64,000 bases of DNA from Streptomyces celluloflavus (lineage in GTDB: Bacteria > Actinomycetota > Actinomycetes > Streptomycetales > Streptomycetaceae), in assembly GCA_000720995.1 (NCBI GenBank), contig JOEL01000002.1, positions 248,001 to 312,000 on the forward strand, read 5' to 3'. Positions 29,446-64,000 of this stretch are shown here, piece after piece; position 1 is the stretch's first letter; every line of letters begins with the position of its first letter. The notes beneath the pieces were generated by a model. The model worked only from the letters and a program-made list of their open reading frames with translations. It searched no databases and had not been told where the DNA came from. A program made the translations under genes and the position numbers.

Positions 29446-30522
29446 ATGACTGAACCGACGGCCCCGGCAGCGGACCCGGTCCTGGCGCACCACCGGCGCG
29501 ATGGGGCCACCGGCCCGCCGGGGGGACGCGCCGCGGTCATCGCGGGGATCGGCTCGTACGTGCCACCCGGAGTCGTGACCAACCAGGACCTGGAAAAGCG
29601 GCTGGACACCTCCGACGAGTGGATCCGCAGCCGGACCGGCATCGCGACCCGGCACGTGGTCGACGCGGGGACCGCGACCTCCGACCTCGCGGTGGAAGCC
29701 GGGCGGCGGGCGCTGGCCTCGGCCGGCGAGCCGGGGGCGGACGCCGTCGTGCTGGCCACCACCACCTCCGACCGGCCGTGCCCGGCCACCGCGCCGGACG
29801 TGGCCGCCCGCCTCGGGCTGGCCGGCGTCGCCGCCTTCGACATCGCCGCCGTCTGCTCGGGCTTCCTCTACGGACTGGCCACCGCCGCGGGCCTGATCGC
29901 CGCCGGAACTGCCGGACGGGTGCTGCTCGTCGCGGCCGACGCCTTCACCACGATCATCGATCCGCTGGACCGCGGCACCGCCGTGATCTTCGCGGACGGT
30001 GCGGGCGCGGTGGTACTGCGGGCCGGTACGGCGGACGAGCCGGGTGCCGTCGGCCCGGTCGTGCTCGGCAGCGACGGAACGCTCAGCGACCTCATCGAAG
30101 TCCCCGCGGGCGGCTCCCGCCAGCGCTCCTCGGCCACCGCACCGGAGCCGGGGGAGGAGTTCTTCCGGATGCGGGGCCGCGACACCTACCGGCACGCGGT
30201 GATGCACATGCTGGCCGCCTCCGAGGAGGCGGTCGCCCGCGCGGGGTGGCGGCTGGCGGATGTCGACCGGCTCGCCGCTCACCAGGCCAACGCCCGCATC
30301 CTCGCCACCGTGGCGGAGCGGCTGGGCCTGCCCCCCGAGCGGCAGCTCTCCAATATCGAGACGGTGGGCAACACCGGCGCCGCGTCGATCCCCCTCCTGC
30401 TGGCGCAGTCCGCGGCCGAGGGCCGGCTGACGGCCGGTCACCGCGTCCTGCTCACCGCGTTCGGCGGGGGACTGGCCTGGGGGGCGACCACCGTGGTGTG
30501 GCCCGAGGTGAAGGCCCTCTGA
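29446..30522 (+). CDS. Beta-ketoacyl-ACP synthase III (FabH-like)
   Basis: A 358-aa thiolase-fold enzyme with the complete KAS III triad: Cys137 in DIAAVCSGFLYG, His279 in AHQANARI and Asn309 in ETVGNTGAAS. The N-terminal SYVPPGVVTNQDLEKRLDTS and DEWIRSRTGIATRHV are typical FabH. It condenses an acyl-CoA primer with malonyl-ACP. In this place it probably primes a dedicated fatty acyl chain, possibly with a branched primer, for the adjacent FAAL-PKS; that is inferred from the following ACP and KAS II. ATG 29446 is chosen because the FabH-like sequence follows soon after, with GGAAGGA 12 bases upstream; the frame stays open to a GTG at 29311. First gene of the long operon. Confidence 0.87.
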   Translation: MTEPTAPAADPVLAHHRRDGATGPPGGRAAVIAGIGSYVPPGVVTNQDLEKRLDTSDEWIRSRTGIATRHVVDAGTATSDLAVEAGRRALASAGEPGADAVVLATTTSDRPCPATAPDVAARLGLAGVAAFDIAAVCSGFLYGLATAAGLIAAGTAGRVLLVAADAFTTIIDPLDRGTAVIFADGAGAVVLRAGTADEPGAVGPVVLGSDGTLSDLIEVPAGGSRQRSSATAPEPGEEFFRMRGRDTYRHAVMHMLAASEEAVARAGWRLADVDRLAAHQANARILATVAERLGLPPERQLSNIETVGNTGAASIPLLLAQSAAEGRLTAGHRVLLTAFGGGLAWGATTVVWPEVKAL

Positions 30523-30602
30523 ACCGCCCTCCGATCCGTCCGCACGTGCGGACGCGCCGTGCGGACCCCCGATGCCCAGAGGCTCCCAGGAAAGGAAGCA
30601 CC

Positions 30603-30842
30603 GTGTCCGTGCAGTTCGAGCAACTCAAGGAAATCCTGGTCACCAAGTTGCGGGTGGCGCCGGAGCAGGTCACGCCCGAGGCGACGTGGGAGGACATCGA
30701 GCTGGACTCGCTGGCGATGGTCGAACTGTCGCTGATGCTGGAGGAGAACTGCGGTCTGCGGATCGGCGACGACGAACTGCTGGAGACGCCGACGATCAAG
30801 GACATGGTGCGCCTCATGGAAGAGCGGAGCACCACGGCCTGA
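30603..30842 (+). CDS. Stand-alone acyl carrier protein
   Basis: A 79-aa ACP starting at GTG 30603, with the phosphopantetheine serine (S36) in DIELDSLAMVEL and an acidic helix II/III region (LMLEENCGLRIGDDELLE). It would carry growing chains between the KAS III and KAS II that flank it, and possibly hand the finished acid to the FAAL. Its stop TGA shares one base with the ATG of the KAS II gene (TGATG), so the two are translationally coupled. AGGAAAGGAAGCACC upstream gives a good ribosome site. Confidence 0.92.
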   Translation: MSVQFEQLKEILVTKLRVAPEQVTPEATWEDIELDSLAMVELSLMLEENCGLRIGDDELLETPTIKDMVRLMEERSTTA

Positions 30843-32062
30843 TGTCCGGGATCGATGTCGCGGTGACCGGGATCGGCCTGGTCACCCCCGGTGGCGTCGG
30901 AGTCGGGCCGAGCTGGGCGGCGGTCTGCGAGGGCCGGCCGACGGCTGCCCTGGACCCCGGGCTCGCGGGCAACCCCGTACGGCTCGCGTGCCGGGTCCCC
31001 GGCTTCGACGCGGACGCCCTCCTCGGCGCCCGCCGCGCCTACCGGCTGGACAGATTCGTCCAGTTCGCGCTGGTGGCGGCGCGCGAGGCGCTCGCCGACG
31101 CCGGGCTCGACCCGCACTCCTGGGACGGTGCGCGGGTCGGGGTGGTGCTCGGCTGCGCCGACGGCGGGCCGGGCACGGTGGAGCAGCAGCACGACGTCCT
31201 GCGGGACCGTGGCGTCGCCAAGGTCTCCCCGCTGCTGCTGCCCATGCAGCTGCCGAACATGCTGGCCGGCCAGACCGCCATGGAGTTCGGGGCCACCGGA
31301 CCCAATCTGGTGGTGGCCACGGCCTGCGCGTCCGGGGCCACCGCCATCGGCACGGCCCGGGACCTGCTCGCGCTGGACCGGTGTGACGTCGTACTGGCGG
31401 GCGGCAGCGAAGCGATGATCACGCCCCTGGTGATGGCCGGTTTCGCGCAGATGGGAGCGCTCTCCCGCCGCGAGGACGACCCGGCGACCGCCTCCCGGCC
31501 GTTCGACGTCGGCCGCGACGGCTTCGTCGCGGGCGAGGGGGCGGGCGTCCTGGTGCTGGAGCGCACCGCCGACGCCCGAGCCCGCGGCGCCGGGGTGCGG
31601 GGCAGGATCGTCGGCTACGGCGCGACCGCGGACGCCCACCACATGACCAGCCCGCACCCCCGGGGCGTTGGGGTCGAGCGGGCCCTGCGCGCGGCGCTGG
31701 CCGACGCGGACGCCACCCCCGCCGACGTCCGGCACGTCAACGCCCACGGCACCTCCACGCAGCTCAACGACCTGGTCGAGGCCCAGGCGCTGAACCGGGT
31801 GCTGACCGCGGACCCGCTCGTCACCTCCACCAAGGGCGTGACGGGGCATCTGCTGGGCGCGGCGGGTGCGGTGGAGGCCGCGTTCGCCGTCCTGGCCGTC
31901 GAGCGAGGGGTGGTGCCTCCCACCGCCAACCTGTCCCGGCTGGACCCGCGGATGGACATCGGTGTCGCCCGTACCCGGACCGACGCCCGGGTGGAACTCG
32001 CGCTGAGCAATTCCTGCGGATTCGGCGGTCAGAACGCCACGCTGGCCATCGCCGCGGCCTGA
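30842..32062 (+). CDS. Beta-ketoacyl-ACP synthase II (FabF-like)
   Basis: A 406-aa elongating condensing enzyme. Catalytic residues are Cys162 in VVATACASGATAIG, His302 in VNAHGTSTQLND and His336 in KGVTGHLLGAAGA. The C-terminal NSCGFGGQNATL is the gatekeeper region of FabF/KAS II enzymes. With the preceding KAS III and ACP it makes a minimal elongation set; ketoreduction, dehydration and enoyl reduction would have to come from housekeeping fatty acid synthase. It is not a chain-length-factor-type protein because the active Cys is intact. Role in making the lipid starter is inferred from the FAAL immediately downstream. Confidence 0.87.
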   Translation: MSGIDVAVTGIGLVTPGGVGVGPSWAAVCEGRPTAALDPGLAGNPVRLACRVPGFDADALLGARRAYRLDRFVQFALVAAREALADAGLDPHSWDGARVGVVLGCADGGPGTVEQQHDVLRDRGVAKVSPLLLPMQLPNMLAGQTAMEFGATGPNLVVATACASGATAIGTARDLLALDRCDVVLAGGSEAMITPLVMAGFAQMGALSRREDDPATASRPFDVGRDGFVAGEGAGVLVLERTADARARGAGVRGRIVGYGATADAHHMTSPHPRGVGVERALRAALADADATPADVRHVNAHGTSTQLNDLVEAQALNRVLTADPLVTSTKGVTGHLLGAAGAVEAAFAVLAVERGVVPPTANLSRLDPRMDIGVARTRTDARVELALSNSCGFGGQNATLAIAAA

Positions 32063-32151
32063 GCGAACGAAAGAGAAGCAGCGCAAGAAAGAACTGGCCG
32101 GGAAATTTTCGAACCTTCGAGAAAGGAGGAGGGGAGTACGGCCGAAGGGCA

Positions 32152-32664
32152 GTGTTCCCCTGCCGTCCAATGAGCGGAATGACCGGTGTGACGGGCGCTT
32201 CCATGGATGTGACCGGAAAGACGGTGCGGAGCATCGGCCTGCTGCGCATCGACCACCTCGGCATGGCCGTCGCCGACCTCGACGAGGCGATCGAGTACTA
32301 CCAGCGGGTGTTCGGCATGCGCTGCACCCATATCGAGGAGAACCACGAACAAGGGGTGCGGGAGGCGATGATGTCGGTCGGGGACGACGCGGCGGGCGGG
32401 TGCGTCCAGCTGCTCGCACCCCTGACGCCGACGTCGACGATTGCGCGGTTCCTGGACCGCTCGGGCCCCGGCGTGCAGCAGATCGCGTACACCGTCACCG
32501 ACGTGGAGGCGGCCGGTGCGGCGCTGCGCGAGCGCGGGGTGCGCCTGCTGTACGACGCGCCGCGGCGGGGCACGGCGGGCTCCCGGGTCAACTTCGTGAA
32601 CCCCAAGGACGCCGGCGGGCTGCTGGTCGAGCTGGTGGAGCCGGCCCCGGCCGCGGACCACTGA
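32152..32664 (+). CDS. Methylmalonyl-CoA epimerase (VOC family)
   Basis: A 170-aa glyoxalase/VOC-fold protein. It shows GLLRIDHLGMAVADLDEAIE, then YYQRVFGMRCTHIEEN, a central QQIAYTVTDVEAAGAALRER and the C-terminal NPKDAGGLLVELVE, with metal-binding His and Glu residues in the expected strands. Methylmalonyl-CoA epimerase interconverts (2R)- and (2S)-methylmalonyl-CoA; PKS acyltransferases use the 2S form. A dedicated copy inside the cluster argues that at least one AT uses methylmalonyl-CoA. Start is uncertain: GTG 32152 has GAAGGG four bases upstream, while ATG 32170 lacks a ribosome site. The preceding 90 bp contain an AT-rich run with a strong GGAGGAGG near 32122. Confidence 0.83.
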   Translation: MFPCRPMSGMTGVTGASMDVTGKTVRSIGLLRIDHLGMAVADLDEAIEYYQRVFGMRCTHIEENHEQGVREAMMSVGDDAAGGCVQLLAPLTPTSTIARFLDRSGPGVQQIAYTVTDVEAAGAALRERGVRLLYDAPRRGTAGSRVNFVNPKDAGGLLVELVEPAPAADH

Positions 32665-32845: not shown

Positions 32846-41611
<8,766 letters not shown>

Positions 41612-41613
41612 GC

Positions 41614-44600: not shown

Positions 44601-46454
44601 CGCCGTACCGGGCACTGCGTACCACTACGACGGCACCGGTGAGGCCACCGTCCGCCGGGACACGGCCGAGGACCTCGCCCGGCTCCTGGCGGAGCTCGGC
44701 CCGGACACCGCGGGCGGCCTGGCGGTCGTCCACCTGTGGAGCCTGGACACCGGCGCGGGCGAACCGGCCGACGGGGCCGCGCTGCTGCGGGCCCAGCACG
44801 ACGGCTGCATGAGCGCGGTACGCGCCGCCCAGGCCCTCGCCCGGACCACCGCCACCGGTCCGGCCCGCCTGTGGCTGGTCACCCGCGGCGCCGTCCGCAC
44901 CGGCGAGGACGGCCCCGCGGTCCCGGCCCTCGCGCCGGCCACCCTGTGGGGCCTGGGCCGTTCGCTCCAGCAGGAGCACACCGCGATCTGGGGCGGACTG
45001 ATCGACCTGGACCCACGCGACGAACCGCAGGCCCTCGCGGCCCGGCTGACCGCCGAGATCGGGCGCGGCGACGGCGAGGACCAGACCGCCCTGCGCGGCG
45101 CACACCGCTACCTCGCACGCCTGGTGCGCGAACCGGCCCCCGAGGCACCCGGGCGCGGCTTCGGATGGCGCCGGGACGCCGCCTACCTCGTCACCGGCGG
45201 CCTGGGCGGCATCGGACTGGCCGTGGCCCGCTCCATGGCACTGGCCGGTGCCCGCCGGCTGATCCTCGTCGGCCGCACCGGCCTCCCGCCGCGCGGCACC
45301 TGGACCGCGCTGCCCGCCGACGACCCGGCGGCCCACCGCGTCGCCGCCGTACGGGAGCTGGAGTCCCTGGGCGTGAGCGTCCGCGTGGAGCCGCTGGACG
45401 TCTCCGACGAGGAGCAGGTGAACGCCTTCCTCGACCGGTACGAGCAGGAGGGCCACCCCCCGGTCCGCGGTGTGGTCCACGCGGCCGGCGTCGGCGATGC
45501 CGTCCCCCTGCTCGACCTGGAGCCCGACGCCCTGGAGTGGCATCTGCGCGCCAAGGCGCTGGGCGCCTGGGTCCTGCACCGCCGGTTCGCCGAGCGGGAA
45601 CTGGACTTCTTCACGCTCTGCTCCTCCACCAGCTCCCTGCTCAGCTCCCCGTTCTTCGCGGCGTACGCGGCGGCCAACGCGTTCCTCGACGCCCTGGCCG
45701 GACTGCGCCGCGCCCGGGGCCTGCCCGCGCTCAGCGTCAACTGGGGCATCTGGCGGGACACCGGTATGGCCACGCGGGAGGCCGGGTCCACCCCCGGGCT
45801 CAGCCGCGGTATGGGCACCCTGCGCCCCGGCCAGGCGCTGCGCGTCTTCCACCGGCTGCTGCGCCACGAGGGGGCGCAGATCGCGGTGGTGCCGGTCGAC
45901 TGGCCGGACTGGGGGCGCCGCTATCAGGAGGTCTCCGGCTCCGCCCTGCTGTCCGAACTGGTCGGCGGCCGGGGCAGCGTGCCCGCGGCGCGGGCCGTGG
46001 CCCGCCGCTCCCGCCAACTGATCACCCGCGACGAACTGTGCGCGCTCCCCGGGCCCGAGCGCGCACCGGCGCTCTCCGAGCGGCTGCTGCGCAGCGTCAC
46101 CGCGGCACTGGACGCGCAGTCCGTGCGCCCGTCCGCCGACCAGCCGCTGCTCGACCTCGGCGTCGACTCCCTGATGGCGGTGGAACTCAAGAACGAGATC
46201 GAGGGCGGGCCGGGCGTCTCTCTGCCCATCTCCGCCTTCCTCAAGGAGGACGCCTCGGTGGAGCGGATCGTCGAACAGATCATGGCGCGGCTGTCGGCCG
46301 GGCCCGGCGCCGCGGCCGGGGACACCGGCATCCGCAAGGCACCGCGCTACGAGGACGCCGCGGCCGAACTCCTCGCCGAGCTCGCCGGGCTCCCGGAGGA
46401 GCGGGTGCGCGGCCGGCAGGACCGGCAGCAGGACCGGCGAGAGGAGGGGCCGAA

Positions 46455-46458: not shown

Positions 46459-49811
<3,353 letters not shown>

Positions 49812-52800: not shown

Positions 52801-55639
52801 CGCCCGCGACGGGGAGCGCTCCTGGACGCTGGACCCCGCCAGCCGCGAACACCTCACCGGCCTCGTCACATCCCTCGGCGCCGACGGGCCGCGGCCGCTG
52901 CGCCTCGTCCACCTGTGGAGCACCGCCGACGGGCCCGCGGCCGGCCTCGACGCGGCCCGGCTGGACGCGGCCCGCCGCACCGGCTTCGACAGCCTCCTCG
53001 CGCTGGCCCAGGCCCTCGGCGAGGTCCGCCCGCAGGCCCCGGTCACCCTCGACGTGCTGGCCCGCGGCCTGTACAGCGTCACCGGCGAGGAGCCCCTGCA
53101 GCCGGAGAACGCCACCCTGCTCGGCGCCTGCACCGTCATCGGCCAGGAGATCGCCGGCGTCACCTGCCGCACCCTGGACGTCACCGGCACCGATCCGCAC
53201 CGGCCGGGCGACGGCGCGGTCCGGGCGGTGCGCGGTGTCCTCGGCACCCCCGTCGAGGAGCGCGAACTGGCGCTGCGCGGCGCCCACTGGTGGATCCGCG
53301 ACTTCGACGCGACGCCGCTCCCCGAAGGCCGCACCCGGCTGCGCGACGGCGGCGTCTACCTCGTCACCGGCGGCCTGGGCGGCATCGGACTGGCCCTGGC
53401 CGAGCACCTGGCCGAAGCCGTCGAACGCCCCGTCATCGGCCTGCTGAGCCGCTCCCCGTTCCCCGCCGAGGACACCTGGGACACCCACCTCGCCGCACCC
53501 GGCGCACCGGACCCCACCGCCGTCCGCATCCGCCGGCTGCGGCGCCTCCAGGAGCTGGGGGCGCGGACCGTTGTCCTCCAGGGCGACGTCACCGACCGGG
53601 AACAGACCGCGCGGGCGGTCGCCGCACTGCGCCGCCACGGTGCGCTCAACGGCGTCGTCCACGCGGCCGGACTGCCCTCCCGCGGCATGATCACGGGCAA
53701 GACGCGCGCGGACGCCGACCAGGTGCTCGCCGCCAAGACCCTCGGCACGCTGGTACTCGACGAGGTCTGCGGCACGGACGGACTGGACTTCCTGCTGCTG
53801 TGCTCGTCCCTGACCGCCCTGCTGGGCGGCCCCGGCCAGAGCGACTACTGCGCCGCCAACGCCTTCCTGGACGCCTACGCCCAGTGGAAGCGCCAGGAGA
53901 CCGGGACGCCGGTCGCGGCCGTGGCCTGGGACACCTGGCGCGGTGTGGGCATGGCCGCCGGGCTCGCCGCCCGGCTCGGCGGCGCCACCGCGGCCGGCGG
54001 CGAGCCGACCGGCCACCCGCTGCTGCACCACCTGGTGGAGTCCGGGCCGCAGTCGCGGACCTACCGCAGCGCACTCAACACCGACGACACCTGGGTGATC
54101 GCCGACCACCGCATCATGGGCCACGGCCTGGTACCCGGCACGGCCTATCTCGAACTGGTGCGGGCCGCGGTCGCCGAGGAGTCCGCCGGGCGCGCCGTGG
54201 AACTGCGCGATGTGCTGTTCGCCCTCCCCGTCGTCGTACCCGACGGGCACACCAGGGCGCTCCACACCACCGTGGAGACCCGCGACGGACAGCGGCGGTT
54301 CACGGTGCGCAGCAACGACGGCACCGGCGACCCCGCCATCTGGCAGACCCATGCCGTCGGCACCGTCGCCTTCCCCGACGCCGAGGGCCCGCGGACCGCC
54401 GTGCCCCGCGACCTCGAAGCGCTGCGCCGGGAGTTCGCCGCCGCGCGGGTCGTCGACGGCCAGGAGGAACTGCGCCGGCTGTTCAAGCTGGACCTCCTGG
54501 AGCAGGGCGGGCGCATCGAGTTCACCCTCGGCCCGCGCTGGCACTGCCTCCACCGGGTCCATGTCGCCGAGGACCGGCTGCTGGTCGAACTGGGCCTGGA
54601 CGAGGCGTTCCTGGCCGACCTCGACGGCTTCGCGCTGCACCCGGCGCTGCTGGACGTCGCGGGCGTCTCCGCCCGCATCCAGATGCGCGACGGCTACTAC
54701 CTGCCGTTCACCTACGGCAGCCTGCGCGTCCACGGCGCGCTGACCGCCACCGTGCTGTGCGACGTGCATCTGAAGGGTTCCGACGACGCGGGCGAGACCC
54801 TGAGGTGCGATATCGACATCCTCGATCCGCGCGGGCACCCGCTGGTCGAGATCGCCGACTTCACGCTCAAGCGGATCAACGACGTCGACGCCATGATCGA
54901 GCAGATCGGGCAGGCCACCGACGCCGCGGTACGGGGCGGCGACGGCGGCACGGTGGCGGGGCCCGCCGAGGGCGGCACGCTGCGCACCCTGGCCGAGGGC
55001 ATCGCCGAACGGGACGGCGTGGCCGCGTTCGCCCGCGTCCTGGCCGCCCCCGTGCTGCCGGCCCAGCTCGTCGTCTCCCACCTCGACCTCGCCACGGCGC
55101 GCGGGCTCGCCCGCTCGCTCACGCCGGAGGCGCTGGCCCGGGAGGCCGAGACCTTCGCACCGCCCGGCGGCACGCACCCGCGCCCCGACCTGGACACGCC
55201 CTTCGTCGCCCCGGCCACCGACCCGGAGCGGGCGGTCGTAGCCATCTGGCAGGAGGTGCTGGGCATCGACGGTATCGGCGTCCACGACGACTTCTTCGCG
55301 CTCGGCGGCCATTCGCTCGCCGCCGTGCAGATCGGCGCGAAGGTCCGGACCCGGTTCGGTACGGAGATCGAACTGCGGGAGTTCTTCAACGGGCCGACCG
55401 TCGCCCACACCGTCACCCTCCTCGCGGCCGGCGGCACGCACCGAGGCCCTGCGGACGCCATCCCGGCACTGCGCCGCGACCCGGAACCCGGCGCACCGGA
55501 CGAAGCACCGGACGGCCTCGACCTGGCGGGCCTGTCCGACGAGGAAGTGGAAGCCATGCTCCGGGACGTGCTCGCCGCCGATGCGGCCGGGTCCGTGGCA
55601 CCCGGCACGCACCCGGAGCGGCAGGGGGAGAGCGAATGA
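49817..55639 (+). CDS. PKS module with reversed order: KS-AT-KR-DH-ACP
   Basis: A 1940-aa module. The first 40 residues are strongly acidic with a PDA repeat. KS (about 42-465; Cys212, His348, KSSVGH) has the GVFAGASLNSYLLFN segment common in KS domains that accept from NRPS. AT (Ser658 in GHSIGE) has HAFH at 756-759, the malonyl signature. KR about 1175-1400 has GGLGGIG and Tyr1344. Unusually the dehydratase comes after the KR: hot-dog domain about 1405-1690 with His1431 in DHRIMGHGLVPG; the second catalytic position reads LLDVAGVSA, not the usual DxxxQ. ACP S1833 (GGHSLAAV) resembles a PCP. Acting on seryl-S-PCP it would give a 4-amino-5-hydroxy-2-enoyl unit, which loss of water would turn into aminopentadienoate. 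Confidence 0.91.
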   Translation: MPDTADEPNATDERPDERDTVDNLNAPDAPDAPDAADDANHVAIIGMAGRFPGASGIDAFWRNLEAGRETIAALTDEELLASGVTAQELADPRYVRAKGVLEDGDRFDAAFFGYTPREAELMDPQHRVFLECAWEALESAGCDPTTFEGRIGVFAGASLNSYLLFNIMGNRRVYDSTGLHRTLLASDKDFLATRASYKFDLKGPAVTVQTACSTSLTAVHLACQSLLNGECDIALAGGVSVSVPLKSGYLHEQGGILSAQGHCRAFDADADGTVAGNGTGIVVLRRLADARAHGDEIDAVVRGTAVNNDGALKAGYTAPSVEGQAEVIAEALAVAEVDPASVGYVETHGTGTALGDPIEIAALTRAYREHTDETGYCAIGSVKSSVGHLDAAAGVTALIKATLALKRQAIPATLGFTRPHPELALADSPFFVNDRLRPWPRADGAPRRAGVSAFGIGGTNVHVVLEEAPDAAPGGPSRAVQLLPLAARTAPALVAGARRLADHLERHPELPLGDVAHTLARGRRAFGTRAGVVCRDTAEAVTALRALTEADARPAADRAPVAFLFPGQGSQYAGMARDLYAHEPRFAAEVDRCAELFAPHLGTDLRTLLYPEPGQEEAANRELAQTALTQPALFTVEYALAQLWMSWGVRPGAMAGHSIGEYVAACLAGVFPLPDAVRLVAARGRLVQAMPRGAMLTVFLPEDETARWLGEDDALCLAAVNSTGLSVVSGPHVAVEALRERLRAAGIAARALHTSHAFHSPSMDGAVAPFVEEVRTVRPAAPRIPFCSDVTGTWITDEEATSPEYWGRHLRRTVRFADVLDVLLADPDLVPLEVGPGQALGNFVRQHAACRDGRTAFGSLRHPKDKRDDRAHLAQTLGALWSAGADVDWSAHFADERRRPVRLPGYAFERQRYWIEPDADGGPGPRSAAQATAPLDDWFYTPGWKRRPHPGARPADATDAVWAVLGTDLALGRELARRLESEGATVVRVGTGGALARDGERSWTLDPASREHLTGLVTSLGADGPRPLRLVHLWSTADGPAAGLDAARLDAARRTGFDSLLALAQALGEVRPQAPVTLDVLARGLYSVTGEEPLQPENATLLGACTVIGQEIAGVTCRTLDVTGTDPHRPGDGAVRAVRGVLGTPVEERELALRGAHWWIRDFDATPLPEGRTRLRDGGVYLVTGGLGGIGLALAEHLAEAVERPVIGLLSRSPFPAEDTWDTHLAAPGAPDPTAVRIRRLRRLQELGARTVVLQGDVTDREQTARAVAALRRHGALNGVVHAAGLPSRGMITGKTRADADQVLAAKTLGTLVLDEVCGTDGLDFLLLCSSLTALLGGPGQSDYCAANAFLDAYAQWKRQETGTPVAAVAWDTWRGVGMAAGLAARLGGATAAGGEPTGHPLLHHLVESGPQSRTYRSALNTDDTWVIADHRIMGHGLVPGTAYLELVRAAVAEESAGRAVELRDVLFALPVVVPDGHTRALHTTVETRDGQRRFTVRSNDGTGDPAIWQTHAVGTVAFPDAEGPRTAVPRDLEALRREFAAARVVDGQEELRRLFKLDLLEQGGRIEFTLGPRWHCLHRVHVAEDRLLVELGLDEAFLADLDGFALHPALLDVAGVSARIQMRDGYYLPFTYGSLRVHGALTATVLCDVHLKGSDDAGETLRCDIDILDPRGHPLVEIADFTLKRINDVDAMIEQIGQATDAAVRGGDGGTVAGPAEGGTLRTLAEGIAERDGVAAFARVLAAPVLPAQLVVSHLDLATARGLARSLTPEALAREAETFAPPGGTHPRPDLDTPFVAPATDPERAVVAIWQEVLGIDGIGVHDDFFALGGHSLAAVQIGAKVRTRFGTEIELREFFNGPTVAHTVTLLAAGGTHRGPADAIPALRRDPEPGAPDEAPDGLDLAGLSDEEVEAMLRDVLAADAAGSVAPGTHPERQGESE
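49892..49918 (+). repeat. Three 9-bp tandem repeats encoding Ala-Pro-Asp
   Basis: GCCCCGGAC occurs three times in a row in the acidic N-terminal linker of the PKS, coding APD each time. It is in frame and probably extends a flexible docking arm. Confidence 0.9.
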
Positions 55640-58600
55640 GCGGGACGAGCGGAGCGGGGGACGGCGGTATGCGCGGCACCGGCCTGGACGGTCTCACACC
55701 GGAACAGAAGCGGGCGCTGCTGGCCCGGCGCCTGAAGGAGCGCACACAGCGCCGCACCTTCCCCGCGTCGTTCTCCCAGGCGCGGATGTGGTTCCTGGAG
55801 CAGCTGACCCCGGGCAACGCCGCGTACACCGTCCCCGGCGCGATGCGGGTGCACGGCCCGCTGGACGTGGACCTCTGGCGGCGCTGCTGCCGGGAGCTGG
55901 TGCGGCGGCACGAGGCGCTGCGCACCACGTTCGAGGAGTCCGACGGGCAGCCGGTGCAGGTCGTCGCCGCCACCGGCGAGCTGGAGGTGACCGTCGAGGA
56001 CTGCCCGCAGCTGAGCGGTCCCGGCGGAGACGAGGCCGTCCGGGAGCTGGCCCGCGCGGAGTTCGCCCGCCCCTTCGACCTGACCACCGGCCCCTTGCTG
56101 CGGATGAAGTTCCTGCGGCTGGCGCCCGAAGAGCACATCCTGCTGCTGACGATGCATCACATCGTCGGCGACCTGTGGTCCACCTCCGTCGCCTTCGGGG
56201 AACTGATAGCCCTCTACGGCGCGTTGAGCAAGGGAGAGCGGCCGCACCTGCCCGAACTGCCCATCCAGTACGCGGACTACGCCGTATGGCAGCGCAACCG
56301 GCTGGCGGGCGACGCGCTCGCCGCCGACCTGGCGTACTGGCAGGAGACCCTGCGCGGCGCCCCGCCGATGCTGGAGCTGCCCACCGACCGGCCCCGCCCG
56401 CCCGTGCAGAGCACCCGCGGCAGCTCGGTGCCCTTCACCGTCCCGCCCCAGGCCATGGAGCGGCTGCTGGAGCTGAGCCGGGACGCGGGCGCCACCCCGT
56501 TCATGACGGTCCTGGCGGCCTTCCTGGTGCTGCTGCACCGCCACAGTCGCGAGGAGGACATCGTCGTCGGGGTGCCCGTCGCCGGGCGCGGCCGCTCCGA
56601 AGCCGAATCGCTGATCGGGCTGTTCACCAACATGCTCGCGCTGCGCACCGACCTGTCGGGCCGGCCGGGCTTCCGCGAGGTGCTGGCCCGGGTCCGCCAG
56701 GCGTCCCTGGGCGCCTTCGCCCATCAGGAGCTGCCCTTCGAGCGGCTGGTGGAGGAGGTGCACCCGCAGCGGGACCCGTCGCGCTCGCCGGTCTTCCAGG
56801 TCTCCTTCCTCTTCCAGAACATCCCGCTGCCCGACTTCGGCGAGGTCGGGCTGCGCATGGCACCGATGGAGGTGCGGAGCGCCACCTCCCGCTTCGACCT
56901 GGAACTCCAGGTCTTCCACCGGCCGGACGGGCTCAGCGGCTGGTTCGAGTTCAACACCGACCTGTTCGACCCGGCCACCGTCGAACGCATGGCCCGCCAC
57001 CTCAGGGTGCTGCTGGAGAGCGTGACCGCCGACCCGGACCGGCCCGTCGGCGAACTGCCCATGCTCACCGCCGACGAGGAGCGCGCCCTGCGGGACGAGG
57101 GCACCGGCCGCCGCGAGGCGGACGAGCCGCCGCCGGCGCACCGGCGCTTCGCCCGGCAGGCCGCCCGCACCCCGCGGGCACCCGCCCTGCGCACCGCGGA
57201 GGAGACCCTCGACTACGCCGCACTCGACCGCCGCGCCAACCAGCTGGCACACCGCCTCGCGCGGCTCGGGGTGGGCACCGACGTCCTGGTCGGCCTCTGC
57301 CTGGAGCGCACCGCCGACCTGGTCGTCGCCGTGCTGGCGGTGCTCAAGGCGGGCGGCGCCTTCGTACCGCTGGACCCCGGCTTCCCGCCGGACCGCATCG
57401 CGTACTCCCTGGCGGACTCCGGGGTGTCCGTCCTGCTGACCCAGCGCACGGTGCTCGACGGGCTCGCGCCCGCCGAGGCGACCGCGCTGTGCCTGGACGA
57501 GCTGCGCGCGGAACTGGCCGCCGAACCCGCCGACGCCGTCGAAGCGCCGGTGCGGCCCCAGGACCTCGCCTATGTCATCTACACCTCCGGCTCCACCGGG
57601 CGCCCCAAGGGCGTCCAGATCCCGCACGGCGCCCTGGCCAACTTCCTGCGGTCGATGCGGCAGGAGCCCGGCATCACGGCCGGCGACACCCTGCTCGCCG
57701 TCACCACCCTCGCGTTCGACATCTCCCTGCTGGAGATCCTGCTGCCCCTGACGGAGGGCGCCCAGGTCGTACTGGCCGACCGCACCACCGCCGCCGACGG
57801 GGAGCAACTGGGCGCCGCCCTGGCGCGATCCGGGGCGACGGTCATGCAGGCCACCCCCTCCACCTGGCGCATGCTGCTGGACGCCGGCTGGCAGGGAGCC
57901 CGGGGCTTCCGCGCACTGGCGGGCGGCGAGCCGCTGCCCGAGGAACTCGCCGGCCGGCTGCTCGCCACCGGCGTGGAGCTGTGGAACATGTACGGGCCGA
58001 CCGAGACCACCATCTGGTCCGCGGCCTCCCGGGTCGCCCCCGGCCCGGTCACCCTCGGCGGCCCCCTCCTCAACACCGAGCTGCACGTACTGGACGCCGG
58101 GGGCCACCTGGTGCCGCACGGCGTGCCGGGCGAGCTGTGCATCGGCGGCGCCGGGCTGGCCCGCGGCTACCTGGGCCGGCCCGAGCTGACCCGGGACCGG
58201 TTCATCACCCACCCCTTCCCCCGCGGCATGGGGGAGCGGCTGTACCGCACCGGGGACCTGGTGCGCCGCCGGGCCGGCGGCCGCATCGAGTTCCTGGGCC
58301 GGCTGGACCACCAGGTGAAGCTGCGCGGCCACCGCATCGAGCTCGGCGAGATCGAGTCGGTGCTGGCCCAGCAGGACGCGGTCCGGGAGGCGGTCGTCGC
58401 GGTCCGCGAGGACATACCCGGCGACCAGCGGCTGACGGCGTACGTGGTGGCCGCGGACGAAGCGGACGCCCCGGACGCCGCGGGCTTCCGGGCCGGTGAC
58501 GACGGCACCGAGCCGGCGTGGGAGCCGGAGCACGGACCGGCGTCGTCGGAGAGCCCGGAGGAGTGGCGCCGCATCTGGGATGCCGCCTACGCCGAGGCCG

Positions 58601-60330
58601 CCGATACCGCCGTGGACGCGGACACCGGGGCCGGGGCGGACGCGGCCTTCGACATCCGCGGCTGGAACAGCAGTTACACCGGCGAGCCGATCCCCGCCCC
58701 GGAGATGCGCGAATGGGTCGAGCGGACCGCGGAGCTGGTCCGCGGCCTGGGCCCGCGCTCCGTCCTCGACCTGGGGTGCGGCACCGGCCTGCTGCTGCAC
58801 CGGCTCGCGCCGCACTGCGACCACTACTGGGGCACCGATATCTCGCCCGTCGCCCTGGACAGGCTGCGGCGCTCCGTTGGCCCCGGCCGCCATCCGGCGG
58901 ACGTCCGGCTCTTCGAGTGCGCCGCGGACCGGGCCGGCACCCTGCCGGACCGGCAGTTCGACGTCGTGGTCCTCAACTCGGTGGTGCAGTACTTCCCCGA
59001 TGAGCGCTACCTGCTGCGGGTGCTGGAGGCCGCCGTACGGCGCCTGGCCCCCGGCGGCACGCTCGTGGTCGGGGACGTGCGCAGCCTGCCGCTGCTGGAG
59101 AGCTTCCACGCCGCCGTGCAACTCCACCGCGCCGAGGCGGGGCTGACGGCCGGGCAGCTGGCCGGGCGGATCCGCCGCGCGGTCGCCGAGGACCGGGAAC
59201 TGGTCATCGACCCGGCCCTGTTCACCGCCTTCGCCGCGCGGTCGGACGCCCTCACCTCGGTCGCGGTGCTGCCCAAACGCGGCACCTTCGCCAACGAGAT
59301 GACCCGCTTCCGCTACGACGTCCTGCTGACCGCCGGCACCGGCTCCACCACCGCGGCCCCCACCCCGCCCGCACCTGCCTGGCTCGACTGGCGCGCGGAG
59401 CGGCTCACCCCGGACGCGCTGCGCGCCCGCCTGACCGCCGGCCGGCCCGCGACGCTGGCCCTCCGTGCCGTCCCCAACCGGCGGACGGCCCCCGGCGCCG
59501 CGCTGCTGACCGCCCTCCGGGACGCGGACGGCTCCCCGGTCGCAGAGCTGCACGCCGCGCTCGACGGTACGCCGGACGCCGACGGCGCCACCGACCCCGA
59601 ACAGCTGTGGCAGCTCGCGGCGGAGAGCGGCTACCGCATCGCCTTCGACTGGGCCGGGCACGGCACCGACGGCTCCTTCGACGCCGTCCTCACCCGCGCC
59701 GACGCCGCCGACGCCGCCGCAGTCACCGCCGCGCTCCCGGCCGCCCCCGACGCCGACGCCCCCGCCCGCCCCTGGCACACCTACGTCAACGGCGCCGAAC
59801 GCCGCCGCACCCAGCGGCTCACGGCCCACCTGCGCAGCGCCGCCGCCCGCACGCTCCCCGCATACATGATCCCGGCCGCGTTCGTCTTCCTGGACGCGCT
59901 GCCGCTGACCCCGAACGGCAAGATCGACCGCAAGGCGCTGCCCGACCCCGACCTCGGCCGCCGGGAGCTGAGTTCGGCCTACGTCGCCCCGCGCACTGCG
60001 GTCGAGGAGGTCGTGGCGGGCTTCTGGGCGGAGGTGCTGGGCCTGGACCGGGTGGGGGCGTTCGACAACTTCTTCGACCTGGGAGGCCATTCGCTGCTCA
60101 GTACCCGCATCGCCGCCCGCCTCAAGGACGCCTTTCGGACCACCGTCCCGCTGCACCGGGTCTTCGGCCATCCGACCGTGGCCGGTCTCGCCGAGACCCT
60201 GGTGGCCGAGAGCGGCAACGGCGAGGTCATCGAGAAGACCGCCGAGCTGCTGGTGAAGCTCAGTGCCCTCTCCGACGACCAGGTGGCCCAGGCACTCGAC
60301 GGCAACCCGCCGACGGGTACGGGCTCGTGA
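55636..60330 (+). CDS. NRPS module C-A(Gly)-N-methyltransferase-PCP
   Basis: A 1564-aa module whose ATG overlaps the previous stop as ATGA. The C domain (about 45-470) has HHIVGDL at H174. The A domain (from about 490) gives D695 I L from FDISLLE, Q from MQATPS, L/G from ALAGGE, M from WNMYG, I/W from TTIWS and K: DILQLGMIWK, a glycine code. A SAM methyltransferase is inserted before the A-domain C-terminal lobe (about 950-1260; LDLGCGTG at 1045, NSVVQYFPDERYL), as in N-methylating modules. The A10 lysine (K1429, NGKIDRKAL) and PCP serine (S1486, GGHSLLST) are intact. The predicted unit is N-methylglycine (sarcosine), which matches the rakicidin-type depsipeptides. Confidence 0.93.
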   Translation: MSGTSGAGDGGMRGTGLDGLTPEQKRALLARRLKERTQRRTFPASFSQARMWFLEQLTPGNAAYTVPGAMRVHGPLDVDLWRRCCRELVRRHEALRTTFEESDGQPVQVVAATGELEVTVEDCPQLSGPGGDEAVRELARAEFARPFDLTTGPLLRMKFLRLAPEEHILLLTMHHIVGDLWSTSVAFGELIALYGALSKGERPHLPELPIQYADYAVWQRNRLAGDALAADLAYWQETLRGAPPMLELPTDRPRPPVQSTRGSSVPFTVPPQAMERLLELSRDAGATPFMTVLAAFLVLLHRHSREEDIVVGVPVAGRGRSEAESLIGLFTNMLALRTDLSGRPGFREVLARVRQASLGAFAHQELPFERLVEEVHPQRDPSRSPVFQVSFLFQNIPLPDFGEVGLRMAPMEVRSATSRFDLELQVFHRPDGLSGWFEFNTDLFDPATVERMARHLRVLLESVTADPDRPVGELPMLTADEERALRDEGTGRREADEPPPAHRRFARQAARTPRAPALRTAEETLDYAALDRRANQLAHRLARLGVGTDVLVGLCLERTADLVVAVLAVLKAGGAFVPLDPGFPPDRIAYSLADSGVSVLLTQRTVLDGLAPAEATALCLDELRAELAAEPADAVEAPVRPQDLAYVIYTSGSTGRPKGVQIPHGALANFLRSMRQEPGITAGDTLLAVTTLAFDISLLEILLPLTEGAQVVLADRTTAADGEQLGAALARSGATVMQATPSTWRMLLDAGWQGARGFRALAGGEPLPEELAGRLLATGVELWNMYGPTETTIWSAASRVAPGPVTLGGPLLNTELHVLDAGGHLVPHGVPGELCIGGAGLARGYLGRPELTRDRFITHPFPRGMGERLYRTGDLVRRRAGGRIEFLGRLDHQVKLRGHRIELGEIESVLAQQDAVREAVVAVREDIPGDQRLTAYVVAADEADAPDAAGFRAGDDGTEPAWEPEHGPASSESPEEWRRIWDAAYAEAADTAVDADTGAGADAAFDIRGWNSSYTGEPIPAPEMREWVERTAELVRGLGPRSVLDLGCGTGLLLHRLAPHCDHYWGTDISPVALDRLRRSVGPGRHPADVRLFECAADRAGTLPDRQFDVVVLNSVVQYFPDERYLLRVLEAAVRRLAPGGTLVVGDVRSLPLLESFHAAVQLHRAEAGLTAGQLAGRIRRAVAEDRELVIDPALFTAFAARSDALTSVAVLPKRGTFANEMTRFRYDVLLTAGTGSTTAAPTPPAPAWLDWRAERLTPDALRARLTAGRPATLALRAVPNRRTAPGAALLTALRDADGSPVAELHAALDGTPDADGATDPEQLWQLAAESGYRIAFDWAGHGTDGSFDAVLTRADAADAAAVTAALPAAPDADAPARPWHTYVNGAERRRTQRLTAHLRSAAARTLPAYMIPAAFVFLDALPLTPNGKIDRKALPDPDLGRRELSSAYVAPRTAVEEVVAGFWAEVLGLDRVGAFDNFFDLGGHSLLSTRIAARLKDAFRTTVPLHRVFGHPTVAGLAETLVAESGNGEVIEKTAELLVKLSALSDDQVAQALDGNPPTGTGS

Positions 60331-60505: not shown

Positions 60506-63500
60506 GTGACCCCCACCGGCCGCTTCAACCTCTCGTCCCAGCGCCGGGAGCTCCTGGAGAGCCTGCTGCGCGCGGAAGGAATCGAACGGGCACCGTCCCG
60601 GACGGTCGTGCCGCGCCAGGACCCGGCGGCACCCGTCCCCCTGGCCTTCTCGCAGAGCCGGTTCTGGTTCCTGGACCGCTTCTCGGCCAACAGCGCCTCC
60701 TACGTCATCTCGGCGGGACTGCGCGTGCACGGAGACTTCCGCCCCGAGGCGTTCACCCGCGCCTGCCAGGAGGTCGTGCGCCGCCACGAGTCGCTGCGCA
60801 CGGTCTTCCACGAGGACGGCGGGCAGCCCGTCCAGCAGGTCCGCGACGACCTGCCGCCCGAGGTACGCACCGTCGGCCTGCGGCACCTGCCCCAGGACGC
60901 CGCCGAGGCGGAGACCGAGCGGCGCGAGGCGGCGCTGGTCGCCCGGCCCTTCGACCTCGCCACCGGCCCGCTGCTGCGCGTCGAGATCCTCGACCTGGCA
61001 CCGGACGAGGCGGTCGTGCTGGTCAACCTGCACCACATCGTCACCGACCGCTGGTCCATGGACATCCTCATGCGGGAGATCACCGGTGCCTACGGCGCGC
61101 TGGCGGCCGGCCGGCCGGCCCAACTGCCGCCGCTCACCGTGCAGTACGCCGACTTCGCGCGCTGGCAGCACGGCCCGGCGGCACAGGCGGCCTGGCAGTC
61201 CGACCTGGAGTACTGGACGCGGCAGCTCGCGGACCTCCCCTCGGAGACCGGCCTGCCGACGGTGCTGCCCCGCCCCAAGGAGAAGACCTACCGCGGCTCC
61301 TCCGTACCGCTGCGGCTGCCGGCCGGCCTCCTGGCCCGGCTGCACGAGGTGGGACGGGCCGCGGACGCCACCCCGTTCATGGTGCTCACCGCGGTCTTCC
61401 AGGTCCTGCTGGCCCGCCTGAGCGGCAACGACGACATCGTCGTCGGCACCCCCGTCGCCCACCGCACCCAGCCGGAACTGGAGCCCCTGGTCGGCCTGTT
61501 CGTCAACACCCTCGTCCTGCGCACCGACCTGAGCGGCGACCCCACCTTCCACGAGGCCCTGCGGCGCGTCGCGGCGGTGTGCCTGACGGCGTACGACCAC
61601 CAGGACATCCCCTTCGAGCGCCTGGTGGAACAGCTGAAACCCGAGCGGTCCCTGGCCCACACCCCGGTCTTCCAGGTGCTGGTGTCGTACCAGAACGTCC
61701 CGATCCCGGTGTGGAACGAGGGCACGGTGCGCGCCGAGCCGCTCGCCCTGGAGGCCAAGAAGGCCGAATTCGACCTTCTGCTGGACATGTTCGAGGACGA
61801 CGGGCAGGTCTGGGGCCGCCTGGAGTACAGCACCGACCTCTTCGACGAGCCCGCCGCCCGGTCGCTGGTGGCCCGCTTCGAGCGGCTGCTGCACGCCGTG
61901 GCCGCCGACCCGCGGCAGCGCATCGGCGACCTCCCCCTCCTCGACGACGCCGAGCAGCGGCGGCTGACCGCCCCCACCGGCGCGGACCGGCCGCCGGACG
62001 AGCGGGACGCGCCGCTCCAGACGCCCTTCGAGGACCTCGCCCGCGCCCACCCCGACGCCCCCGCGATCCGGTACGGCGGCCACCTCCTGACCTACGGCCA
62101 GGCCGACCGGCGCGCCAACCAGCTCGCCCACTGGCTCCGCCGGCTGGGCGTGCAGCAGGGCGTCCTGGTCGGCCTGTGCACCGACCGCACACCCGAGCGG
62201 GCCATCGGCGCCCTGGCGGTGCTCAAGGCCGGCGGCACCCTCCTGCCGCTGGACCCCGCCGATCCGCCGCAGCGCCTGGCGCAGCAGCTCGACGACGCCC
62301 GGCCGCCACTGCTCCTCACCCACAAAACCGCGCGTTCCGTCCTGCCGCCCGACGACGCCGAGGTGCTGGACCTCGACGACCTCGGCCCGGCCCTCGACGA
62401 GGAACCCGAGGACGCCCCGCCGGCCGGCACCCACGGCACCCACCCCGCCTGCCTCGGCCACACCGCGGGCACCACGGGCCGGCCCAAGGGCGTCCAGACC
62501 ACCCACGCCGCGCTCCGCCACCTGCTGCTGGGGCTGCGCGACCACTTCGCGCTCGGCGCCCGGGACCGGGTGCTGCACGCCGCATCGTTCTCCACCACCA
62601 CCGGGCTGCGCGAGGTGCTCTGGCCGCTGCTGAGCGGCGCCGAACTCGTCCTCGCCCCGGAGCCGGCGACCGCGGACCCCGGGCGGCTGGCCGCGGTGAT
62701 CCGGGGAACGGGCGTGACCACCGTCGACCTCACCCCGCCCCGGCTCCAGCGCTTCCTCCACGAACCGGACGCGGCCCACTGCACCACCCTGCGGCTGGTG
62801 CTCAGCGGCGGCGAACCGCTGCCCCCGGCCCTCCCCGCACGCCTCCGCGCCCGGACGGCGGCCGAACTGCACCACCTGTACGGGTCCCGCGAGACCGGCG
62901 GGCCCGCCCTGGCCCGGCACTGCCGCCCGGACGACACCGCCGCCCCGGTGCCGGCCGGCACGCCCCTCGCCGGCGCCCGCGTCCTCGTCCTGGACGCGGC
63001 CCGGCGGCCCGTGCCCACCGGCGTATCCGGCGAGCTGTACATCGGCGGGCCCGCCCTCGCCCAGGGCTACCCGGACCGGCCCGACCTCACCGCCGAGCAC
63101 TTCACCGACCACCCCGCCGTCCCCGGCGAACGGCTCCACCGGACCGGCGACCGGGCCCGGCTGCGCCCCGACGGCGGCCTGGAGATCCTCGGCCGCGTCG
63201 GCGAGGAGGCGACACTGCGCGGCTTCCGGATACCCGTGGACCGTGTCGAGGCCGAACTGGCCGCCCACCCTTCCGTAGGCGAGGCCGTGGCCACCGTGAC
63301 CGCCCGGTCCGGCGCGGAGCGACTCACCGACTACGTCACTGCCTACGTCACCGCTGACGACAAAGGAGCCCCCGATCCGGCCGAACTGACCGCGCACGCC
63401 AGGGAACGCCTGCCGGAGTACATGGTTCCGTCCGTCGTCGTCCTGCCCGCGCTCCCGCTGACCTTCGACGGCCGCACCGACCAGGCCGCCCTGCCCGCCC

Positions 63501-64000
63501 CCGAGACCGCCGCCCCCGGCGACGGGCCGCGCTGCACCGAGCCCAGCGGCGACCTGGAGCGCGCCATCGCCGAATCCTGGCGGGAGCTGCTGGGCGCCCC
63601 GCGGATCGGCGCCCACGACAACTTCTTCGAACTGGGCGGCCACTCCCTGCTCCTGACCAAGCTCGCCGCCCAGCTCTCCGCCGCCCACGGCATCGACGTC
63701 CCGCTGCGCATGCTGTTCGAGAACCTCACCGTGGCGCGGATGGCGGCCTGGATCGACGAGCACCGGGGCGACGGCGCCGCCAAGGCCACGGCCATCCCAC
63801 TCCTCGGCCGCGATGGCGGACTGCCGCTCTCCTTCGCCCAGGAAGAGCTGTACCTGCACCAGCCGGTGCCCGCCCAGGAACCGTTCCACAACGTCCTGAC
63901 CGCGGTCACCCTCCACGGCCCGCTCGACGAGGCGGCCCTGCGCCACACCCTGGACACCGTCGTCCGGCGCCACGAGGCGCTGCGCACCCGCATCGCGGAG
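60506..64000 (+). CDS. NRPS with degenerate adenylation domain: C-A*-PCP-C... (runs off window)
   Basis: The first 1165 residues of an NRPS. C1 (about 45-480) has HHIVTDR at H176. The A domain (about 495-1000) is badly eroded. A3 reads HTAGTTG (652-658) instead of TSGSTG. A4 reads FSTTTGLRE (from F695), with no Asp at the amino-group-binding position and two extra residues. A5 reads YGSRETGG instead of YGPTE. A8 reads EEATLRGFRIP. The A10 catalytic lysine is Arg990 (FDGRTDQ). The PCP is normal (S1047, ELGGHSLLL), and a second C domain starts near 1105. The module therefore cannot activate an amino acid in the usual way. GTG 60506 has AGAGG upstream; 175 bp separate it from the previous gene. 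3' end, further modules and release domain are outside the window. Confidence 0.92.
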   Translation, partial: MTPTGRFNLSSQRRELLESLLRAEGIERAPSRTVVPRQDPAAPVPLAFSQSRFWFLDRFSANSASYVISAGLRVHGDFRPEAFTRACQEVVRRHESLRTVFHEDGGQPVQQVRDDLPPEVRTVGLRHLPQDAAEAETERREAALVARPFDLATGPLLRVEILDLAPDEAVVLVNLHHIVTDRWSMDILMREITGAYGALAAGRPAQLPPLTVQYADFARWQHGPAAQAAWQSDLEYWTRQLADLPSETGLPTVLPRPKEKTYRGSSVPLRLPAGLLARLHEVGRAADATPFMVLTAVFQVLLARLSGNDDIVVGTPVAHRTQPELEPLVGLFVNTLVLRTDLSGDPTFHEALRRVAAVCLTAYDHQDIPFERLVEQLKPERSLAHTPVFQVLVSYQNVPIPVWNEGTVRAEPLALEAKKAEFDLLLDMFEDDGQVWGRLEYSTDLFDEPAARSLVARFERLLHAVAADPRQRIGDLPLLDDAEQRRLTAPTGADRPPDERDAPLQTPFEDLARAHPDAPAIRYGGHLLTYGQADRRANQLAHWLRRLGVQQGVLVGLCTDRTPERAIGALAVLKAGGTLLPLDPADPPQRLAQQLDDARPPLLLTHKTARSVLPPDDAEVLDLDDLGPALDEEPEDAPPAGTHGTHPACLGHTAGTTGRPKGVQTTHAALRHLLLGLRDHFALGARDRVLHAASFSTTTGLREVLWPLLSGAELVLAPEPATADPGRLAAVIRGTGVTTVDLTPPRLQRFLHEPDAAHCTTLRLVLSGGEPLPPALPARLRARTAAELHHLYGSRETGGPALARHCRPDDTAAPVPAGTPLAGARVLVLDAARRPVPTGVSGELYIGGPALAQGYPDRPDLTAEHFTDHPAVPGERLHRTGDRARLRPDGGLEILGRVGEEATLRGFRIPVDRVEAELAAHPSVGEAVATVTARSGAERLTDYVTAYVTADDKGAPDPAELTAHARERLPEYMVPSVVVLPALPLTFDGRTDQAALPAPETAAPGDGPRCTEPSGDLERAIAESWRELLGAPRIGAHDNFFELGGHSLLLTKLAAQLSAAHGIDVPLRMLFENLTVARMAAWIDEHRGDGAAKATAIPLLGRDGGLPLSFAQEELYLHQPVPAQEPFHNVLTAVTLHGPLDEAALRHTLDTVVRRHEALRTRIAE

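What the first reader, a model, noticed from the sequence alone, without database searches (positions are those of the whole stretch)
29446..64000. Assembly line matching the logic of APD cyclodepsipeptides (rakicidin/BE-43547 type) in a Streptomyces
The order FAAL-PKS, KR-only PKS, Ser-NRPS, malonyl PKS with KR and DH, and Gly-NMT NRPS predicts lipid / beta-hydroxy acyl / serine-derived 4-amino-2,4-pentadienoate / sarcosine. The sequence shows domains, carrier sites and Ser and Gly codes directly. That APD depsipeptides combine a 3-hydroxy lipid, a Ser+malonate-derived dienamide and N-methylglycine is established for rakicidins, as I recall it. The APD dienamide is the reactive feature of that family. 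The final residue(s) here are undetermined, so the product may be a new member.
Basis: partly seen in the sequence, partly recalled or inferred. Interest (0 to 1): 0.82.

Follow-up and report, generated by a model that had tools for sequence, protein, structure and literature searches.

The report
A rakicidin gene cluster, probably Streptomyces
This stretch of a bacterial genome holds most of a known kind of gene cluster, the one that makes rakicidin-type antitumour lipopeptides, and comparison with relatives suggests that one building block is loaded by a separate helper enzyme because the built-in loading site is dead.

Summary
Read past the window end, it matches the published rakicidin D cluster of Streptomyces sp. 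MWW064 over 15 genes, in order, at 81-94% protein identity, including the Asn oxygenase RakO and the odd NRPS RakN. Apparently new: RakH, published as the Asn module, has a dead adenylation (A) domain, while RakN joins a catalytically dead condensation domain to an intact A domain with an Asn-like code and has no carrier domain. RakH's A domain is dead, and RakN's code identical, in 6 of 6 rak clusters; in 6 of 6 other APD clusters whose last A domain could be read, and where no RakN was seen, it is intact. I infer that RakN charges RakH's carrier in trans. Dead A domains rescued in trans are known, by [A-T] proteins (PMC8949500). A KASIII-ACP-KS trio, not seen in the Micromonosporaceae rak clusters, may build the short starter acid. 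New member of a known kind; moderate interest.

The parts
27835..28758 (+). putative cluster-linked regulator (by position probably the 331-aa 'transcriptional regulator' of MWW064)
   Evidence: 84% to MWW064 over 302 aa; only a sub-threshold wHTH match in Pfam
29446..30522 (+). KASIII (FabH-like), 358 aa
   Evidence: TIGR00747 and NF006829 above cutoff; 89% to MWW064; no hit in 4 of 4 Micromonosporaceae rak clusters in the stretches fetched
30603..30842 (+). stand-alone ACP, 79 aa
   Evidence: PF00550; DSL site; 94% to MWW064
30842..32062 (+). KASII-like ketosynthase, 406 aa
   Evidence: NF005589 above cutoff, TIGR03150 just below; 92% to MWW064
32224..32664 (+). methylmalonyl-CoA epimerase, 146 aa
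   Evidence: TIGR03081 above cutoff; homologues at 69-76% in 4 of 4 Micromonosporaceae rak clusters
32882..41611 (+). RakAB: FAAL-ACP-KS-AT-DH-ER-KR-ACP, 2909 aa
   Evidence: best solved relative 7r7g 'Polyketide synthase', then fatty-acid-AMP ligases such as FadD23 and FadD32; 86.5% to MWW064 RakAB
41614..46458 (+). RakC: KS-AT-KR-ACP, AT motif TSSHS, 1614 aa
   Evidence: 86% to MWW064
46455..49811 (+). RakD: C-A(Ser-like)-T, 1118 aa
   Evidence: 88% to MWW064
49817..55639 (+). RakEF: KS-AT(malonyl)-KR-DH-ACP, 1940 aa
   Evidence: 85% to MWW064
55669..60330 (+). RakG: C-A(Gly-like)-methyltransferase-T, 1553 aa
   Evidence: 83% to MWW064
60506..64000 (+). RakH: C-A*(dead)-T-C; the gene runs on to window-equivalent 65215 (L013:1506-6215), 1569 aa. 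Beyond the window follow ABC exporter (65217-66884), type II TE (66874-67629), RakN (67701-70730), RakO (70776-71771), PvdQ-like acylase (71923-74301)
   Evidence: 81-87% to the MWW064 counterparts

Best explanation
A rakicidin biosynthetic cluster (probability about 0.95). A short fatty acid is activated by the RakAB FAAL and extended by a fully reducing module (C4 methyl) and by RakC with ketoreduction (C2 methyl, C3 hydroxyl). RakD adds Ser; RakEF adds malonate, reduces and dehydrates, giving the 4-amino-2,4-pentadienoate unit; RakG adds N-methyl-Gly. RakH then condenses (3-hydroxy)Asn, made with RakO. My addition (about 0.8): RakH's own A domain is dead, and RakN, an Asn-coded A domain behind a catalytically dead C domain and without a T domain, charges the RakH carrier in trans. 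RakH's terminal C domain probably closes the ring on the lipid 3-hydroxyl, since Pfam found no TE in RakH. Shown by sequence: domains, motifs, orthology. Inferred: substrates, trans loading, cyclisation. Weaker (about 0.55): the KASIII-ACP-KS trio supplies a hexanoate-length starter.
For: Collinear 15-gene match to the MWW064 rak cluster, 81-94% (Table 6 of PMC5073741); serine plus acetate/malonate origin of the APD unit shown there by 13C feeding. RakO's best solved relative is the Asn oxygenase 2og5-2og7, with the FHxEN, HGR and DRWLQR stretches kept (their roles recalled). RakH A domain: no Asp235, altered A3 and A5, A10 Lys replaced, in 6 of 6 rak clusters; RakN code DLPKIAEIGK in 6 of 6; last A domain intact in 6 of 6 other APD clusters where it could be read and no RakN was seen. 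RakN C-domain HHxxxDG lost in 6 of 6, His-His-xxx-Asp of RakH C1 and C2 kept in 6 of 6. Window vs four Micromonosporaceae clusters: RakN A 69-70% but RakN C 38-40%; RakH C1 59-60% but RakH A 35-38%. Against MWW064, dN is 0.070 in RakN A and 0.145 in its C; 0.068 in RakH C1 and 0.123 in its A.
Against: No product, expression or enzyme data for this strain. The RakN code differs from the Asn code that I recall (DLTKLGEVGK) at 4 of 10 positions, one of them a Pro at 239. The six rak clusters are two lineages, so the 6-against-6 contrast is not made of independent events; absence of RakN was judged only on the stretches fetched. The RakH A domain is relaxed but not neutral (dN/dS 0.585). RakH T (0.95), RakH C2 (0.60) and RakO (0.55) are high too, and by identity to MWW064 RakH T (78%) is below the RakH A domain (81%), so the constraint test is not clean. 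Komaki et al. assign Asn to RakH.
Confidence: 0.83

Rival explanations
1. RakH's A domain is divergent but active and loads Asn in cis, as published; RakN makes something else or is a relic.
For: Komaki et al. assign Asn to RakH; the RakH A domain still scores 272 bits as AMP-binding and is not evolving neutrally.
Against: The A10 Lys and Asp235 are gone in 6 of 6; in the four Micromonosporaceae clusters the A3 loop and GPTE motif are gone too; RakH A identity falls to 35-38% while RakN A stays at 69-70%.
Confidence: 0.12
2. An APD depsipeptide of another type (BE-43547, vinylamycin, boholamide) or a new one with a different last residue.
For: Homologues of the RakEF and RakG modules are found in all, and of RakD in most, of the APD loci examined.
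Against: RakN and RakO are present and the order equals MWW064's rak; no extra Gly module before Ser and no Val-type last code such as DAYFWGVTFK, seen in G049, G186 and G545 (Val reading recalled).
Confidence: 0.05
3. The cluster is a rak cluster but silent or broken in this strain (compatible with the best explanation of its design).
For: No expression data; many such clusters are silent under standard culture (PMC12916061, abstract).
Against: All 15 frames are open and collinear; dN/dS is below 1 in all 27 domains or genes tested.
Confidence: 0.2

Closest known systems
rak cluster of Streptomyces sp. MWW064 (NBRC 110611; rakicidin D)
   Same: All 15 genes from KASIII to acylase, same order, 81-94% identity; same codes in the live A domains apart from one residue in RakD (F/I); upstream flank from 19885 also syntenic
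   Different: A different genome (8.68 vs 7.9 Mb); no match for the 16 genes called downstream of the acylase in the roughly 3.5 kb of MWW064 held beyond it, and the best match of the next gene lies on another MWW064 contig
rak clusters of Micromonosporaceae (rakicidins A/B; published in Micromonospora sp. DSW705, PMC5075396; here the unnamed G924, G937, G972, G1003)
   Same: RakAB to RakO, ABC exporter, TEII and epimerase, 48-76% by gene
   Different: No KASIII, ACP or acylase hit in about 17-18 kb upstream and 3-4 kb downstream; KS matches only at 28-30%, inside the PKS genes
Albicidin, ramoplanin and enduracidin NRPSs (inactive A domain rescued in trans; PMC8949500, passages seen)
   Same: A dead in-line A domain and a separate protein with the right A domain
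   Different: Those are [A-T] proteins; RakN is [C*-A] with no T, so it would have to charge the RakH T directly
CDA hexanoyl genes fabH4/fabF3 (PMC9136287, passage seen)
   Same: A dedicated KASIII and KASII in a lipopeptide cluster, giving a C6 acyl chain
   Different: No HxcO/HcmO-type oxidase among the genes annotated here; the acid enters through a FAAL; homology to the CDA genes themselves not tested

Membership tests
Rakicidin (rak) clusters | Gene order RakAB-RakC-RakD-RakEF-RakG-RakH-ABC-TEII-RakN-RakO | tested here: met
   Collinear with MWW064, 81-88% for these ten genes
Rakicidin (rak) clusters | Ser, malonate and Gly-NMT modules giving APD and sarcosine; KR-DH order in RakEF | tested here: met
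Rakicidin (rak) clusters | Asn supply and hydroxylation (RakO, Asn-type A code) | tested here: met
   RakO closest to AsnO structures; Asn-like code in RakN, not RakH
Rakicidin (rak) clusters | Production of a rakicidin | not testable with these tools
   Needs culture and mass spectrometry
BE-43547 clusters | Three amino acid modules reading Gly, Ser, Gly (PMC5075396) | tested here: not met
   Order here is Ser, Gly, then RakH
Vinylamycin clusters | Val-coded A domain in the last module (PMC5075396) | tested here: not met
   Last in-line A domain is dead; the separate one is Asn-like
NRPSs with an inactive A domain complemented in trans | In-line A domain lacking core motifs plus a separate live A domain of the right specificity | tested here: met
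   (by sequence only)
NRPSs with an inactive A domain complemented in trans | Shown transfer of the amino acid in trans | not testable with these tools
   Biochemistry needed
NRPSs with an inactive A domain complemented in trans | Stand-alone protein is an [A-T] didomain | tested here: not met
   RakN ends just after A10; no PP-binding match

The most novel reading that the evidence does not exclude
In rakicidin clusters generally the last amino acid is chosen not by the in-line module but by RakN, a carrier-less stand-alone protein whose decayed condensation domain serves only to dock on RakH, while RakH's adenylation domain has become a structural fossil. The fossil may have arisen twice from a copy of the Ser domain of RakD. 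The last residue would then be set by a separable part.
Probability: 0.6. Interest if true: 0.55.

Novelty: new member of a known kind. Interest (0 to 1): 0.4.

Why it matters
Some APD depsipeptides are hypoxia-selective cytotoxins and inhibit Gram-positive bacteria growing anaerobically (PMC12916061; abstract, introduction and the section on rakicidin producers seen). In 2016 Komaki et al. found a rak cluster in only one Streptomyces, MWW064; this is another, diverged one, useful for comparison. If right, the RakH/RakN division of labour corrects the published assignment of the Asn step, explains why RakH's substrate could not be predicted ('X'), and warns that prediction from the in-line A domain would miss the residue. 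It can be tested with two purified proteins.

Tried and rejected
RakG's condensation domain carries HHxxxDL instead of HHxxxDG in the window and in 16 of 16 related APD loci. I considered it as a sign that this domain removes the Ser hydroxyl. Rejected as evidence: over the loci then held, 18 of 196 distinct motifs were DL; 15 of these are the APD ones, but 3 (L022, L050, L063) lie in loci fetched only as distant RakEF relatives (38-42%) and not shown to be APD clusters. Its best solved relatives are other condensation domains, with AmbE (7r9x) far down the list. Who removes the second water stays open; Komaki et al. propose the RakEF DH.

Whether RakH's dead A domain arose once or twice: in a tree of 52 of 55 A-domain pieces (3 short ones dropped) the Micromonosporaceae ones stand beside their own RakD A domains (100/98) and the MWW064/window pair at the base of the RakD-type group, but one clade of all six is not rejected (AU p 0.081), branches are long and composition is odd. 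Left open.

The KASIII-ACP-KS trio as a rakicidin-only device: rejected. The KS has matches at E <= 1e-130 in 52 of 199 genus genomes, own included. In the 9 best other genomes, which I fetched, 9 of 9 have the trio together. Neighbours were scanned mainly in one (G035, 8 proteins; 2 more in G126): LPG_synthase_C, seryl-tRNA synthetase, a desaturase and a sub-threshold AurF-like match, recalling azoxy clusters, near which KASIII-like genes are reported (PMC9379638, passages). One distant APD-like locus, G963, has a KASIII homologue at 33%.

Other rak clusters by RakN's first 500 residues: 17 of 394 class genomes matched at E <= 1e-30, own included; in the rows listed the others were 32-40% identical and lay in long NRPS frames, so none looked like a RakN.

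The acylase as maturation enzyme: no evidence either way; it is PvdQ/MacQ-like (below the NCBIfam cutoff) and among the stretches searched found only in the window's genome and MWW064.

Structure prediction and fold search were not used.

Full report
WHAT IS THERE. The window is bases 248001-312000 of a 443-kb contig of an 8.68-Mb, 193-contig genome. I fetched the flanks and called genes. The window stops inside the sixth, RakH. Beyond it follow a cyclic-peptide ABC exporter (TIGR01194 above cutoff), a type II thioesterase, a 1009-aa NRPS with C-like and A domains, a TauD-family oxygenase and a penicillin-amidase family protein.

WHAT IT IS. Komaki et al. (PMC5073741, parts 1-3 of 4 seen) describe the rakicidin D cluster of Streptomyces sp. 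MWW064. Its Table 6 has the same genes in the same order; KASIII, ACP, KS and epimerase have identical lengths (358, 79, 406, 146 aa). A scan of bacterial genomes for relatives of the RakEF KR-DH region returned the MWW064 contig at 82% as its best hit, the next being 52% (406 relatives found, 80 kept). Gene by gene the 15 genes run from 80.7% (RakN) to 93.8% (epimerase), all collinear. The upstream flank is also syntenic from position 19885, about as far as my MWW064 stretch reached; the genes downstream of the acylase found no match in the roughly 3.5 kb held beyond it.

CHEMISTRY. The A codes are Ser-like in RakD and Gly-like in RakG, with a methyltransferase inside RakG. RakEF has a malonyl AT motif and KR before DH, the order Komaki et al. 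call unusual. RakC's AT motif is TSSHS, which PMC5075396 (parts 1-3 of 4 seen) takes as likely methylmalonyl; RakAB's AT reads FASHC at that place, and Komaki et al. predict methylmalonyl for its MWW064 counterpart. From their 13C data (acetate C-2 into C18, C20 and C22) I infer a six-carbon starter for rakicidin D, followed by two methylmalonyl extensions. The domain content here predicts the same pattern.

THE LAST RESIDUE. RakO is closest to the asparagine oxygenase structures 2og5-2og7. Komaki et al. give the Asn step to RakH, whose substrate they could not predict. Here RakH's A domain lacks Asp235, has TAG for TSG in A3, GSRE for GPTE in A5, and Arg for the A10 Lys. RakN has intact A motifs with the code DLPKIAEIGK, 6 of 10 positions as in the Asn code that I recall. 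Its C domain has lost the catalytic HHxxxDG and it has no T domain.

COMPARATIVE TEST. I collected 16 related APD loci besides the window: MWW064; L015; three genus genomes (G049, G186, G103) of the four others that matched at E <= 1e-100 in 392 genus genomes (5 of 392 with own; G339 at 38% not used); G545 and G680 from the class search (7 of 394 with own at E <= 1e-100; the four at 39-40% not used); and all nine that matched at E <= 1e-150 in 354 genomes of the family of Salinispora cortesiana, which I call Micromonosporaceae. A further search of G545's genus gave 1 of 13, G545 itself. Six clusters (window, MWW064, G924, G937, G972, G1003) have RakN and RakO. In 6 of 6 RakH's A domain is dead and RakN's code is identical. 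In six others (G768, G903, G545, G049, G186, G963) a last-module A domain could be read and no RakN was seen in the stretch fetched; it is intact in 6 of 6. The remaining five (G680, G103, L015, G789, G1065) showed no such last A domain, because the contig or stretch ended or the line has the Gly-Ser-Gly, BE-43547-like order. The six rak clusters form two lineages, so these are not independent events.

CONSTRAINT. Window against the four Micromonosporaceae rak clusters: RakN A 69-70%, RakN C 38-40%, RakH C1 59-60%, RakH A 35-38%, RakH T 52-55%, RakH C2 52-54%, RakD A 62-64%, RakG A 68-71%. Window against MWW064 (Nei-Gojobori counting in my script): dN 0.070 for RakN A, 0.145 for RakN C, 0.068 for RakH C1, 0.123 for RakH A, 0.111 for RakH T, 0.090 for RakH C2. 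By dN and by these cross-family identities the two domains predicted to be dead are the least conserved NRPS domains. Against a clean story: by identity to MWW064 RakH T (78%) is below RakH A (81%), RakH T (dN/dS 0.95), C2 (0.60) and RakO (0.55) are also high, and the dead A domain is not neutral (0.585). Both RakH condensation domains keep HHxxxD in all six.

INFERENCE. Three amino acids, three NRPS carriers (RakD, RakG, RakH) and three live A domains (RakD, RakG, RakN): the only carrier without a live A domain in cis is RakH's. RakN therefore most likely charges RakH in trans. Inactive A domains rescued in trans by stand-alone [A-T] proteins are described for albicidin, ramoplanin and enduracidin; in the last two an N-terminal extension is present, shown to be needed for ramoplanin (PMC8949500, passages). 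RakN would be a T-less variant, with its dead C domain perhaps playing the part of that extension; this last point is a guess. I found no report of it: a full-text search for RakN with rakicidin gave only PMC5073741; three related searches gave a software paper not opened, three general papers of which I opened one and a list of 13 with 10 shown; one gave none. Most subscription papers are not held. Albright et al. 2014 was looked up and is not held; the BE-43547 biosynthesis paper of Villadsen et al., seen only in a reference list, was not looked up. The idea may be in print there.

PARTS NOT SHARED WITH MICROMONOSPORACEAE. The KASIII-ACP-KS trio and the PvdQ-like acylase are in the window's genome and MWW064 and gave no hit in 4 of 4 Micromonosporaceae rak clusters over the stretches held, apart from generic KS matches within the PKS genes; Table 6 of PMC5075396 lists none in DSW705 either. 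The CDA cluster is reported to use a KASIII/KASII pair for a hexanoyl chain (PMC9136287, passage). I infer that the trio makes the short starter, at about 0.55.

VERDICT. The finding is right and the thing is known: another, diverged rakicidin cluster of the MWW064 kind. The RakH/RakN division of labour is the part that may be new.

Noticed in passing
G768 (L151/L152), G903 (L159), G963 (L162/L163): APD-like clusters whose last A domain has codes DAIQLGFVNK, DLTKLGHI(-)K and DFTKVGHIGK, with no RakN seen; the latter two look Asp/Asn-like to me (recalled codes). Possible new APD members; G963 is distant (RakEF 45%).
   Followed up: partly
window 19885-27333: A block of genes (LPG_synthase_TM, methyltransferase, glycosyltransferase, PTPS, zinc dehydrogenase-like, CDP-alcohol phosphatidyltransferase) lies upstream of rak in both this genome and MWW064 at 81-87%; it looks like shared chromosomal context rather than part of the pathway.
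   Followed up: partly
L180-L188: Close relatives of the KS (78-83%) with KASIII and ACP beside it in 9 other genomes of the genus; in G035 (L181) next to azoxy-cluster-like genes.
   Followed up: partly
L013:12923-15301 (window-equivalent 71923-74301): PvdQ/MacQ-like acylase beside rakO here and in MWW064, with a likely N-terminal nucleophile Ser231; a candidate lipopeptide deacylase of unknown role.
   Followed up: partly
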